A stretch of DNA of 64,000 bases, from assembly GCA_024330185.1 (NCBI GenBank), contig JANDLV010000016.1, forward strand, positions 1-64,000, read 5' to 3'. The notes under the pieces are model-generated. The model ran no database searches, was not told where the DNA came from, and was given only the letters and a program-made list of their open reading frames with translations. Numbering within the stretch: position 1 is the stretch's first letter; each line of letters begins with the position of its first letter. Origin of the DNA: Candidatus Siliceabacter maunaloa. GTDB lineage: Bacteria > Actinomycetota > Thermoleophilia > Solirubrobacterales > Solirubrobacteraceae. The position numbers and the translations under genes are program-made. Positions 12,985 through 15,672 of the stretch are shown piece by piece.

Positions 12985-12993
12985 CCTTTGCGC

Positions 12994-13551
12994 ATGGCCG
13001 TGCCGGTCCAGGCCCCCGCGATCATGACCGCCGAGGATCTCTTGGCGATGCCGGACGATGGGATGAAGCACGAGCTCGTGCGAGGGGAGCTGAGGACGAT
13101 GCCACCGGCGAACTACGAGCACGGATGGATCGCGAGCCGGATCGACCGCCGGCTCGGCAACCACGTCGAGGAGCACGGGACGGGTGACGTGACGACCGAG
13201 GTCGGCTTCAAGCTCCCCGGCGAGCCCGAGACCGTCCGGGCCGCCGATGTGGCCTTCGTGGTCCGCGAGCGGATCGAGAAGGTCGGCCGTTCACGGAAGT
13301 TCTTCGAGGGCGCGCCGGACCTCGCGGTCGAGGTCGTCTCCCCGGGCGACACCTCCACCGAGGTGCACGAGAAGGCACTGGACTGGCTCGCCGCCGGCAC
13401 CCGGCTCGTCCTCGTGGTCCACCCCCGACCCCGCACGATCACCGCCTACCGATCGGCCACCGACATCCGCATCCTCGGCGAGGCCGACACCCTCGACGCG
13501 AGCGATGTCGTGGACGGGTGGACGGTGCGCGTGGCCGAACTGCTGGGCTGA
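12994..13551 (+). CDS. Uma2-family putative restriction-fold nuclease
   Basis: 185 residues of the Uma2/DUF820 family, a PD-(D/E)XK-like fold common in cyanobacteria and actinobacteria with unknown cellular role. Features seen are the opening MTAEDLLAMPD, HELVRGEL, the acidic core RAADVAFV and PDLAVEVVSPGDT, and LDWLAAGTRLVLVVHP. It begins just after metH; a TTG at 12988 is an equally possible start. Uma2 genes often lie singly and are not known to act in methionine metabolism, so the link to metH is probably positional only. Confidence 0.85.
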   Translation: MAVPVQAPAIMTAEDLLAMPDDGMKHELVRGELRTMPPANYEHGWIASRIDRRLGNHVEEHGTGDVTTEVGFKLPGEPETVRAADVAFVVRERIEKVGRSRKFFEGAPDLAVEVVSPGDTSTEVHEKALDWLAAGTRLVLVVHPRPRTITAYRSATDIRILGEADTLDASDVVDGWTVRVAELLG

Positions 13552-13559
13552 GGCCGGTC

Positions 13560-13861
13560 TTGATACACAGCAAGCTGGGCCCGGGCTGCGAAGAACGAGA
13601 CCAGCTCGTCGAACGCCCGGCGGGCGAAGCTCGACGAGCCGCCGGCCTCGGGGAACATCGCCGTCGCCTCCGCGTACGTGGCGGCGGCGCAGAAGAAGAA
13701 CAGGCCGGTGATGAGGAACACCAGCGGCGTGAGCCCCAGCGCGAGCGATGCGAGGAGGCCCAGCGCGTAGTAGATCGACGAGCCGACGTTGCCGTACGCG
13801 GTCGCGAAGAGGCGTTGACGCCCAGCACCCGCTGGAGGCCGTGCAGGCGTCGTTCGGCCAT
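13560..13861 (-). pseudogene. APC-family amino acid permease, N-terminal remnant
   Basis: An ATG at 13861 opens AERRLHGLQRVLGVNA, then the frame shifts by one near 13815 and continues LFATAYGNVGSSIYYALG, LTPLVFLITGLFFF and FPEAGGSSSFARRAF. This is the N-terminal ~95 residues of an amino-acid permease that is normally ~450-650 residues. It ends abruptly near 13560 and the rest is missing. The remnant abuts a MITE-like element 3 bases upstream of its start codon. It carries both a frameshift and a truncation, so it is not functional. Confidence 0.8.
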
Positions 13862-14026: not shown

Positions 14027-14168
14027 CCAGCCCTTGAGCATCCGCCCGGGCGCGTGAAGGCCGCGTGGGTGAACGGACCGGCGGCATCAAGATCGTGAGG
14101 CCGGCAGCGCGTCGACACCGAGCCGGTAGACTGCAAAGACGCAACAGAGAAACCGCTACGGAGAAACG

Positions 14169-14663
14169 ATGGCAGAGAGTACGACAACGCGGCACGTCAG
14201 GATCGCGGGTCAGCAGTTCGCACTGCGCAACGCAGATGTGACGGGGGTCCTGCGAACTGTCGAGCCGGAGCCGATCAGGAGCCACTTCGTCGTGGTGGGG
14301 GCGCGACGCTTTCCCCCGAAGCAGGTCATCAGTGCGGTCACGGGCCTCGACCGAGCCGACTTCACGACGCACCAGGCGAGGCGCACCCTCATGCGGCTTG
14401 GCTTCTCCGCCGGCCGCCGCGGGGCCGGCACATCTCTCGCGCTCGGGAAGGGGCAGTGGGACGGTGCCTCTCCAGAGCGACTGGCCGACCGCTTGCGACC
14501 GCTCGCCGGCCGGTGGGTCGCCATCAGGGACGAGGACATCCTCCATGCTGCCGATTCGCCGCATGAGCTCGTCGGTTGGCTGGGACGGCAGGGGCAGAGC
14601 GCTGACAGCGTCTTTCGCGTGCCCGACGACGAGCTCGCCGCGAACGGGCTCGCTCCCCTGTGA
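14169..14663 (+). CDS. Protein with ScoMcrA-like N-terminal head domain
   Basis: 164 residues. The segment FVVVGARRFPPKQVISAVTG followed by TTHQARRTLMRLGF matches the small head domain found at the N-terminus of ScoMcrA-like restriction proteins and in many short actinobacterial proteins. The C-terminal part (~115-164) starts WVAIRDEDILHAADSP, a pattern seen in small partner domains. No nuclease or SRA domain follows. It overlaps the next gene by 4 bases, and the two probably work as a pair. Substrate and role unknown. Confidence 0.6.
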   Translation: MAESTTTRHVRIAGQQFALRNADVTGVLRTVEPEPIRSHFVVVGARRFPPKQVISAVTGLDRADFTTHQARRTLMRLGFSAGRRGAGTSLALGKGQWDGASPERLADRLRPLAGRWVAIRDEDILHAADSPHELVGWLGRQGQSADSVFRVPDDELAANGLAPL

Positions 14664-15076
14664 GGTTCGGCTTCCGGGAGATCCCGGACCCAGGCCAGGG
14701 GACGGTACGCCCGCGACCGATCGTCGATGTCGTGGTCGAGGGGTTGGCGATCGCACCTCAGGCGTGTCTCCTCGACAGCGGCGCAACGGCGATTCGACTC
14801 GGCTCTCACGTCGCCGAGCTGTGCGGCCTGGATCTCTCGGACGCACCGCGCAGGCAGGTGGGGGTCGGCGGCGCCCTGGTCGATGCCCGCATGGCCGACG
14901 TCAACCTCCGTGTGGCCGACGACGAGGGCACGTACGCGTGGACGGCGCCGGTCTGGTTCTGCGACCCCTGGACGCCGGCCTTCGGGCTCCTCGGGCTCAC
15001 GGGGTTCTTCGACCACTTCGAGGTCACGATCTCCTCGTACCGGGAGCGGATCGAGCTCACGCCCATCAGCGGGTGA
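14660..15076 (+). CDS. Retropepsin-like aspartyl protease
   Basis: 138 residues. It has the hydrophobic-hydrophobic-Asp-Ser-Gly motif of pepsin/retropepsin enzymes (CLLDSGATAIRL) and a later GLLGLTGFFDHF that forms the second hairpin of the fold. One active-site Asp per chain implies a dimer. The GTG start overlaps the TGA of the upstream gene. Similar short bacterial proteases pair with small unknown proteins. No membrane segment or signal peptide, so it is cytosolic. Confidence 0.7.
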   Translation: MRFGFREIPDPGQGTVRPRPIVDVVVEGLAIAPQACLLDSGATAIRLGSHVAELCGLDLSDAPRRQVGVGGALVDARMADVNLRVADDEGTYAWTAPVWFCDPWTPAFGLLGLTGFFDHFEVTISSYRERIELTPISG

Positions 15077-15103
15077 GGCATCTACACGAACCGGTAGCCG
15101 AGT

Positions 15104-15358
15104 GATGGGCATGGCGCTCCAGGCGCGCAGCGCGCGGCACACCTCCACGCCGTCGCCGTCGGGCAGCACCAGGTCGATGATCGCCGCGTCGGGCGGGCGC
15201 ACGGCGGCGGCGTCCAGCGCCTCCTGCGCGGTCTGCGCGGTCTGCGCGGTCTGCGCGGGCACGACCTCGAAGCCGGCCTCGCGCAGCACCACGCGCAGGG
15301 CGCGCAGGATCTGCAGCTCGTCGTCGCAGACCAGGACGCGGGCGACGGGAGCGCTCAT
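15104..15358 (-). pseudogene. Response regulator, receiver-domain fragment (KdpE-like)
   Basis: Starts with an intact ATG and reads 85 residues of a receiver domain: ARVLVCDDELQILRAL (acidic pair) and DAAIIDLVLPDGDG (phospho-acceptor Asp). It breaks off after RAWSAMPI, before the rest of the receiver and the DNA-binding domain. Frame continues only into unrelated antisense sequence. A 9-base repeat (about four copies near 15222-15260) has added Thr-Ala-Gln triplets between beta-2 and helix-2. The ATG overlaps the kinase-fragment stop (ATGA), the remains of a two-component operon. Confidence 0.8.
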
Positions 15359-15672
15359 GACGCCGCGACCGGACGGCGCTCCAGCGGCAGCTCGACGACG
15401 AAGGTCGAGCCCTGGCCGGGCAGCGACTCGGCCCACACCCGTCCGCCGTTGGCCTCCACGAAGCCGCGCACGATGGCCAGCCCCAGCCCGGAGCCGCCGC
15501 CGTGCTCGCCGGGCGCGCGCCAGAAGGGCTCGAAGAGGTGGCGCAGGCGGGCGTGGGAGCCCCGGGCCGCGGTCGATCACGCGCACCACGAGGCGGTCGG
15601 CGTCGGCCCGTGCGCGCACCTGCACCGGGTGGTCGCCGCTGAAGCGCCGCGCGTTCTCCAGCAGCCGTCGGC
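15355..15672 (-). pseudogene. Histidine kinase C-terminal fragment (KdpD-like)
   Basis: Only the ATP-binding end of a kinase remains: N-box LLENARRFSGDHP, G1 box VIDRGPG, and after a one-base frameshift near 15560 HLFEPFW and GSGLGLAIVRGFVEANGG. The sensor and phospho-acceptor parts are absent. At its upstream edge (~15672) the sequence runs directly into the serine-protease fragment, so a deletion or rearrangement fused two unrelated genes. The N-box spacing and sequence are most like KdpD-type kinases. Confidence 0.8.

What the first reader, a model, noticed from the sequence alone, without database searches (positions are those of the whole stretch)
14169..15076. Overlapping pair of ScoMcrA-head-like protein and retropepsin-like protease
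Two short genes share a 4-base overlap inside a decayed, element-rich stretch yet are both intact. Intact gene pairs in such places are often toxin-antitoxin or defence units, and a dimeric aspartyl protease partner would be unusual.
Basis: inference. Interest (0 to 1): 0.5.

Follow-up and report, generated by a model that had tools for sequence, protein, structure and literature searches.

The report
Self-regulated DNA-binding protein and retropepsin pair
Two small overlapping bacterial genes, one for a probable DNA-binding protein and one for a protease built like the HIV protease, travel together through scattered actinobacteria under what looks like their own control switch, laid out like a toxin-antitoxin pair, but what they do is untested.

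Summary
The pair is real and at the stated coordinates. ORF1 (164 aa) has two domains: a basic, winged-helix-like head whose best solved-structure match is the ScoMcrA head (weak, Z 5.6), and a C-terminal DUF5678 domain. ORF2 (138 aa) is a retropepsin-fold aspartic protease (Z 13.4 to Rickettsia APRc) with its catalytic motif intact. All 28 loci with the ORF1 design from one genome scan carry ORF2 or its remains directly downstream, 23 of 28 with the 4-nt overlap. Neighbours are mostly unrelated, and the pair is patchy in the phylum sample. DUF5678 followed by a retropepsin is a wider module; the head makes this a regulatory variant. The most telling new feature is upstream: 18 of 27 ORF1 upstream regions carry RGAGA direct repeats 11 or 14 bp apart, against 0 of 129 neighbouring genes, with no clear excess elsewhere. 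That suggests an autorepressing operator. Best reading: a type II toxin-antitoxin-like module with a retropepsin in the toxin place (about 0.5). An ImmR/ImmA-like protease that cuts its own repressor is the main rival. Toxicity, binding and proteolysis are untested. The paper searches found no description of the pair. Defence is neither shown nor excluded.

The parts
14127..14132 (+). -10-like box TAGACT just upstream of the repeats
   Evidence: Read from sequence. TANNNT boxes stand at a similar place in many orthologous upstream regions (by eye). No convincing -35 seen in the window.
14134..14140 (+). Degenerate first repeat copy (CAAAGAC), 11 bp before the next copy
   Evidence: placed by hand; does not match the RGAGA pattern
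14145..14150 (+). Repeat copy CAGAGA of the putative operator
   Evidence: CAGAGA-N8-CGGAGA occurs without mismatch only here in the 3.79-Mb genome
14159..14164 (+). Repeat copy CGGAGA of the putative operator (may also act as the ribosome-binding site)
14173..14178 (+). Possible further copy CAGAGA inside the first codons of ORF1, again 14 bp on
14169..14663 (+). ORF1: head + DUF5678 protein, 164 aa, proposed DNA-binding antitoxin/inhibitor
14187..14420 (+). ORF1 head domain (residues 7-84), winged-helix-like, ScoMcrA-head/SCO5918-like, basic
14478..14627 (+). ORF1 C-terminal DUF5678 domain (residues 104-153)
   Evidence: through orthologues; the window protein alone gave no Pfam match
14660..14663 (+). 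4-nt overlap GTGA joining the two genes
14660..15076 (+). ORF2: retropepsin-like aspartic protease, 138 aa
14774..14785 (+). Catalytic motif D39-S-G-A of ORF2
   Evidence: D39 and G41 invariant in 32 of 32 aligned proteins
14987..14995 (+). L-L-G112 (hydrophobic-hydrophobic-Gly motif of aspartic proteases)
   Evidence: G112 invariant in 32 of 32

Best explanation
A two-gene, self-regulated module with the layout of a type II toxin-antitoxin system, in which the toxin position is held by a probably cytoplasmic retropepsin. ORF1 binds an array of direct repeats over its own transcription start through its N-terminal head and represses the operon. Its C-terminal DUF5678 domain binds the protease and keeps it inactive, for example by blocking dimerisation or filling the active site. 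When ORF1 is lost or titrated, the promoter opens and free ORF2 dimerises and cleaves one or more host proteins, slowing or stopping growth. Shown here: the two genes, their co-occurrence, the protease fold (by prediction) and catalytic residues, the domain make-up of ORF1 and the conserved repeat array upstream. Inferred: that the head binds the repeats, that DUF5678 contacts and inhibits the protease, and that free protease is toxic.
For: Pairing: 28 of 28 loci with the ORF1 design (L046-L073, 26 genomes) have ORF2 or its remains directly downstream, 23 of 28 with the RTGA/TTGA overlap. Protease: D39, G41, G71 and G112 invariant in 32 of 32 proteins; model pLDDT 94.9; Z 13.4 to APRc 5c9f, 11.8 to FIV protease. 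ORF1 architecture: a head ranking ScoMcrA first and PhoB/CovR winged helices next, net positive in 26 of 26, a low-confidence linker, then DUF5678 (orthologue L038 over the Pfam cut-off; profile-profile probability 98.2). Operator: 21 of 27 upstream regions have two or more NRGAGA copies (20 of 27 with C or T first) and 18 of 27 a pair 11 or 14 bp apart; 0 of 129 neighbouring genes have two copies; shuffles average 0.3 loci with such a pair, maximum 3 in 1000. No clear excess elsewhere: the core pattern occurs twice in 296 genomes, both at the pair, reversed control 3; the three-copy pattern gives 5 hits in 392 genomes, 2 at the pair, 3 elsewhere, control 4. No family shared by more than 3 of 29 neighbourhoods among the clusters printed, apart from frames of the pair itself. 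Patchiness: ORF2 in 3 of 61 close relatives, own genome included, one of the three weak. DUF5678-protease pairing is wider: all 20 strongest protease hits have a DUF5678-like partner upstream.
Against: No experiment. The paper searches found no protease toxin of this kind. The head alone is a standing gene in what I take to be Streptomyces, without a partner, so it is not antitoxin-specific. Most scanned neighbours are ordinary genes. 9 of 27 upstream regions lack an 11/14-bp pair and 6 lack two copies; the exact core is in 8 of the 27 and in only 2 of the 7 pair-bearing genomes among the 296. In the own genome a looser three-copy pattern with one mismatch hits 6 places against 0 in the control: one is the pair, three lie in likely coding frames, two (L133, L135) do not, so a few further targets are not excluded; CAGAGA-N8-CGGAGA with one mismatch hits 8 places against 3. 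The repeats lie near the start codon and could act in RNA. DUF5678 as the protease's partner rests on gene order and a modest distance correlation (partial r 0.58 against 0.38 for the head, 22 pairs). Of 19 DUF5678 places, 7 have no retropepsin seen next to them. Similarity of DUF5678 to the HicB antitoxin fold was tested and not supported (probability 24).
Confidence: 0.5

Rival explanations
1. Repressor-cleaving switch, working like ImmR/ImmA or DdrO/IrrE (recalled). ORF1 is a repressor of the operon and ORF2 is its antirepressor protease, which cuts ORF1 in the flexible linker after a signal; the output is not toxicity but a burst of proteolysis or regulation.
For: DNA-binding-like head and overlapping protease gene in one operon; a low-confidence linker at residues 88-97 between the domains. 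Two own-genome repeat sites outside likely coding frames leave room for further targets.
Against: No clear wider regulon: the repeat patterns are not in excess elsewhere in the phylum samples. Many DUF5678 partners lack the head, so a repressor to be cut is not the constant feature; DUF5678 is.
Confidence: 0.2
2. Foreign-DNA sensor with protease effector: the head recognises altered or invading DNA, as a reader beside the ScoMcrA nuclease might, and releases the retropepsin through DUF5678, giving abortive infection.
For: The head resembles the ScoMcrA head weakly. A related head in a Nocardioides plasmid belongs to a protein with a weak UPF0102 match (E 3.7e-4, below cut-off; Mrr_cat E 0.18). 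DUF5678 partners have variable N-terminal regions.
Against: The ScoMcrA head is reported with unknown function (PMC6224610, passages). No PADLOC match at E <= 1 for the pair. Among the 30 neighbour proteins scanned I saw no defence operon, only two PIN, one Uma2 and one AAA_14/DUF4143 protein. An operator of its own suffices to explain a DNA-binding head.
Confidence: 0.15
3. Ordinary regulated proteolysis: a specific maturation protease with its inhibitor or chaperone, kept for some non-conflict housekeeping role.
For: Bacterial retropepsins known so far process specific substrates (RimB on RpsF, PMC11957791, abstract; APRc on adhesins, PMC4140852, abstract). Many loci sit among metabolic genes.
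Against: Patchy distribution, no constant neighbour and a self-operator fit a housekeeping role poorly.
Confidence: 0.13

Closest known systems
Type II toxin-antitoxin operons (MazEF, VapBC, HicAB; recalled)
   Same: Two short overlapping genes, a first gene with a DNA-binding-like and a partner domain, repeats at the promoter, scattered distribution, no fixed neighbours
   Different: The second protein is a retropepsin, not an RNase, kinase, gyrase poison or similar; toxicity untested; DUF5678 is not known to me as an antitoxin domain
ImmR/ImmA and DdrO/IrrE repressor-protease pairs (recalled)
   Same: DNA-binding-like regulator next to a protease
   Different: Aspartic retropepsin instead of a zinc metalloprotease; no clear wider regulon seen; the head resembles winged-helix folds rather than an Xre-type helix-turn-helix
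Bacterial retropepsin-like proteases: Rickettsia APRc (5c9f), RimB
   Same: Fold of ORF2 (Z 13.4 to APRc), D-[ST]-G motif
   Different: APRc is an outer-membrane protein (PMC4140852, abstract); RimB works in the RimABK complex (PMC11957791, abstract); ORF2 shows no signal or membrane segment by eye and has a dedicated DUF5678 partner
DUF5678 (PF18929) proteins with a retropepsin gene
   Same: Same C-terminal domain and same gene order
   Different: The window's ORF1 adds the SCO5918/ScoMcrA-like head and the repeat array
SCO5918 family (NF038312) and the ScoMcrA head domain
   Same: Head motif and, weakly, fold
   Different: ScoMcrA joins it to sulfur-binding, SRA-like and HNH domains (PMC6224610, passages); Streptomyces keeps it alone; here it is fused to DUF5678

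Membership tests
Retropepsin-like aspartic proteases (clan AA) | D-[ST]-G catalytic motif and hydrophobic-hydrophobic-Gly motif | tested here: met
   D39-S-G-A; D39, G41, G112 invariant in 32 of 32
Retropepsin-like aspartic proteases (clan AA) | Single-lobe retropepsin fold | tested here: met
   Predicted model pLDDT 94.9; Z 13.4 to 5c9f, 11.8 to 3ogp; profile hit to FIV protease E 0.0041. Single-sequence Pfam PF13650 scored 20.3, below its 24.3 cut-off.
Retropepsin-like aspartic proteases (clan AA) | Active homodimer, peptidase activity | not testable with these tools
   Needs protein
DUF5678 (PF18929) | Match to the family profile | tested here: met
   Met through orthologues: the window protein alone did not match at E <= 1. 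L038 is over the cut-off (25.1 against 23.2 bits) and L047 gives E 0.0024. The 26-member C-domain profile matches 12 partner domains from other pairs with probability 98.2; only some of those 12 are over the Pfam cut-off themselves.
SCO5918 family (NF038312) | Curated score cut-off of 60 bits for the whole protein | tested here: not met
   52.2 bits, E 5.2e-14, residues 12-82: a related domain, not a member
ScoMcrA N-terminal head | Same fold | tested here: inconclusive
   Top-ranked solved structure, but Z only 5.6 and Foldseek E 0.23
Type II toxin-antitoxin system | Two-gene operon of small proteins, antitoxin usually first | tested here: met
   Gene order in 28 of 28 and overlap in 23 of 28 loci; which protein is the toxin is not tested
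Type II toxin-antitoxin system | Antitoxin autoregulates through an operator | tested here: inconclusive
   Repeat array at the promoter; binding not tested
Type II toxin-antitoxin system | Second protein toxic alone, neutralised by the first | not testable with these tools
   Needs expression
ImmA/IrrE-type antirepressor | Zinc metallopeptidase domain | tested here: not met
   ORF2 is an aspartic retropepsin
Known anti-phage defence systems (PADLOC) | Match to a PADLOC model | tested here: not met
   No family at E <= 1 for either protein
HicB antitoxin fold for DUF5678 | Profile-profile similarity | tested here: inconclusive
   Probability 24 over 31 columns

The most novel reading that the evidence does not exclude
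A new toxin-antitoxin class in which an HIV-protease-like aspartic protease is the toxin, DUF5678 is the constant inhibitory domain, and interchangeable N-terminal domains (here a ScoMcrA-head-like DNA binder acting on an 11/14-bp repeat operator) set when it is released.
Probability: 0.4. Interest if true: 0.82.

Novelty: new variant of a known kind. Interest (0 to 1): 0.57.

Why it matters
If the reading holds, aspartic proteases would join the enzymes used as intracellular bacterial toxins. DUF5678, for which the one search made found no functional paper, would gain a role as a natural retropepsin inhibitor. The ScoMcrA head, reported with unknown function (PMC6224610, passages), would gain a testable role as a DNA-binding domain with a named target sequence. 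The operator prediction can be tested in one gel-shift experiment.

Tried and rejected
Single-sequence searches: Pfam, NCBIfam and PADLOC gave no full-length assignment. Phage records for ORF1, plasmid records for ORF2, and viral contigs for both: no relative (ORF2 was not searched in phage records). Plasmids gave 27 records with the head only. A plasmid search with the protease of another DUF5678 pair (L077) found nothing. HicB fold for DUF5678: not supported. Operator class against head residues: four loci have TAAGT and no YRGAGA copy (L033, L036, L049, L071); the first three carry N66, L071 carries T66, and no alignment column stood out convincingly, so I do not build on it. Regulon: the three other three-copy hits in the phylum sample (L277, L279, L280) lie inside unrelated open frames and match the control rate. 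In the own genome two of the five other one-mismatch sites are not in likely coding frames and were not followed further. The repeat core in viral contigs gave at least 120 stretches (the scan stopped at its limit); I computed no expectation and did not pursue it. Protease hits L122-L126 are weak and show no DUF5678 partner, and L120 is a fragment. 12 of the 42 protease places were not opened as loci.

Rows dropped: alignment A3 leaves out L069, L072 and L073 (frameshifts, an N gap, a remnant). The 27 upstream regions leave out L069 and L073 and use one copy of each locus that was fetched twice; L036 has only 43 upstream bases. Start codons for L052, L057, L063 and L072 were placed by hand and may be a few codons off. 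The gene caller used for neighbours is a simple script of mine. The 12 domains used were partly chosen by a G-x-[WYFV] motif, so that test is not fully blind.

Full report
What is there. ORF1 (14169-14663) and ORF2 (14660-15076) are open and overlap by GTGA. dN/dS is 0.23 and 0.19 for ORF1 against L047 and L046, and 0.17 and 0.31 for ORF2 against L047 and L050, which points to purifying selection.

ORF1. Residues 7-84 form a small domain modelled with high confidence. NCBIfam sees it as SCO5918-like below the family's cut-off (52.2 against 60 bits). The first-ranked solved structure is ScoMcrA (residues 4-94, its head), Z 5.6, followed by the PhoB and CovR winged helices at 3.3 and 2.7. Z values this low can reflect a common arrangement, so the label is a lead. 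The head is net positive in 26 of 26 aligned proteins. After a linker with low model confidence comes a domain of about 50 residues. In the window protein alone it escapes Pfam, but the orthologue L038 passes the DUF5678 cut-off, and the ORF1 C-domain profile matches 12 partner domains from other pairs with probability 98.2.

ORF2. Its profile hits FIV protease (E 0.0041); its predicted model (pLDDT 94.9) matches Rickettsia APRc at Z 13.4 and FIV protease at 11.8. D39, G41, G71 and G112 are invariant in 32 of 32 aligned relatives, so the protease is probably active.

The pair elsewhere. In a sample of 396 genomes of the phylum, 22 match ORF1. By my reading 8 have the full length (own genome included), 9 have the lone head (one unnamed genus, which I take to be Streptomyces), 3 have other head-bearing genes and 2 match only over the DUF5678 part. 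A scan of the species-genome collection gave 30 loci: 28 with the ORF1 design, from 26 genomes, and 2 from Rhodococcus/Rhodococcoides with the head in a different protein. All 28 carry ORF2 or its remains directly downstream: L046 is cut by its contig end, ORF2 is broken in L067 and L070, both genes look broken in L069 and L073 (L073 by eye), and ORF1 has an N gap in L072. 23 of 28 keep the 4-nt overlap. The records are metagenome-assembled genomes of Actinomycetota and at least one labelled Dormibacterota, except Conexibacter sp. S30A1, which is listed as a complete genome. ORF2 occurs in 3 of 61 close relatives, own genome included; one of the three is weak and has a stop inside. Apart from frames of the pair itself, no gene cluster printed is shared by more than 3 of 29 neighbourhoods (25 largest clusters). 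Of 30 adjacent proteins scanned, 3 had no family and most of the rest are ordinary enzymes, transporters or regulators. Toxin-like neighbours occur in a few: PIN genes on both sides in L068, a MazF-like gene near L059 and L073 (by eye), Uma2 next to L067 and next to the window pair.

A wider module. Of 19 DUF5678 places in 149 genomes, 12 have a retropepsin gene just downstream (10 of the 15 over the family cut-off; L091 and L094 are two DUF5678 copies, one with a stop, before one protease); 7 do not. In reverse, 42 protease places in 296 genomes gave 30 opened loci: 20 of the 20 strongest, and 4 of the other 10, have a DUF5678-like partner upstream (three of the 20 through). Nine of these 24 were not in the alignment used for the search. 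Some partners carry other N-terminal regions (L040, L112). So DUF5678 looks like the constant partner of the protease while the N-terminal part varies. Distances between DUF5678 domains follow those between proteases somewhat better than head distances do (r 0.75 against 0.66; partial 0.58 against 0.38; 22 pairs).

The operator. Upstream of ORF1, after a TANNNT box in many loci (by eye), stand direct repeats [CT][AG]GAGA spaced 11 then 14 (then 14) bp, with a shared core AGAGACNNATCRGAGAA that is exact in 8 of the 27 upstream regions. Of 27 upstream regions, 21 have two or more NRGAGA copies (20 if the first base is C or T) and 18 a pair 11 or 14 bp apart; of 129 neighbouring genes none has two copies. 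Dinucleotide shuffles give on average 0.3 loci with such a pair and at most 3 in 1000 trials. Six regions lack two copies: L033 and L036 have two TAAGT copies 14 bp apart, L049 and L071 one, L038 and L064 a single RGAGA copy. In L033 and L036 the -10-like box lies between the TAAGT copies (by eye), so part of the array would not be transcribed, which favours DNA over RNA as the target; this is an inference. The core pattern occurs twice in 296 genomes, both at the pair, against three reversed-control hits; five other pair-bearing genomes in that sample lack the exact core. The three-copy pattern occurs five times in 392 genomes, two at the pair and three inside other frames, with four in the control. 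In the window's own genome CAGAGA-N8-CGGAGA occurs once exactly, here, and at seven more places with one mismatch against three in the control; a three-copy pattern with one mismatch hits six places against none in the control, of which one is the pair, three are in likely coding frames and two are not. The array therefore looks dedicated to the pair, as expected for self-repression, but a few further targets are not excluded.

Mechanism. The layout (DNA-binding-like head, flexible linker, partner domain, then a small enzyme; own operator; scattered distribution; changing neighbours) is that of a type II toxin-antitoxin operon with a protease as toxin. ORF2 alone is broken in two loci whose ORF1 is intact (L067, L070), the direction expected for a toxin, but two cases prove nothing and assembly errors are possible. 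The repressor-cleaving switch is the strongest rival.

Literature. Searches for DUF5678 (1 paper, on another subject by its title), retropepsin with toxin-antitoxin (none), retropepsin with antiphage (none), retropepsin with conflict system (none), SCO5918 (none), retropepsin-like with bacteria, aspartic protease and operon (115 papers, 20 listed), retroviral-like proteases with gene neighbourhood (1 paper) and a wider aspartyl protease/antitoxin search (12 papers) showed no such pair in titles or abstract starts. The library lacks most subscription journals. The ScoMcrA head is stated to have unknown function (PMC6224610, passages). PMC11957791 and PMC4140852 were seen as abstract and outline only.

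Noticed in passing
window 13560-13818 and 15085-15576, minus strand: Fragments that look like a truncated amino-acid-permease-type transporter, a histidine-kinase end and a response-regulator start lie on either side of the pair, as if an older minus-strand operon had been interrupted; read by eye.
   Followed up: partly
window 12988-13551: A Uma2-family gene (PF05685, E 3e-32) sits just upstream; Uma2 also neighbours the pair in L067.
   Followed up: partly
L095 3965-4738 and L097 3965-4750: In Nocardioides and Pimelobacter plasmids a related head belongs to a larger protein, which in L095 matches UPF0102 weakly (E 3.7e-4, below cut-off) and lies near dprA and a GIY-YIG gene; the L097 protein was not scanned.
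   Followed up: partly
L074, L075 (Rhodococcoides, Rhodococcus): The head is part of ~310-320 aa proteins with no Pfam match at E <= 1 and an E-F-K stretch that could belong to a nuclease (by eye).
   Followed up: no
L044 9120-9530, L045 8524-8931: The head is followed by a coiled-coil-like tail, with palindrome-like DNA (AGAAGTTCTAGTACTTCT) upstream in L045; other members of the head family may also bind their own promoters.
   Followed up: no
L040 5806-7466, L112: DUF5678-retropepsin pairs whose DUF5678 protein has a long, different N-terminal region.
   Followed up: no
L020: A head-like match lies by an open frame of 244 aa that begins like a DUF6884-type protein (recalled), followed by a 498-aa open frame with 4-nt overlap.
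   Followed up: no
L091/L094: Two tandem DUF5678 copies, one with a stop inside, before one retropepsin gene.
   Followed up: partly
L133, L135: Two own-genome places with a three-copy repeat at one mismatch that do not lie in likely coding frames.
   Followed up: no
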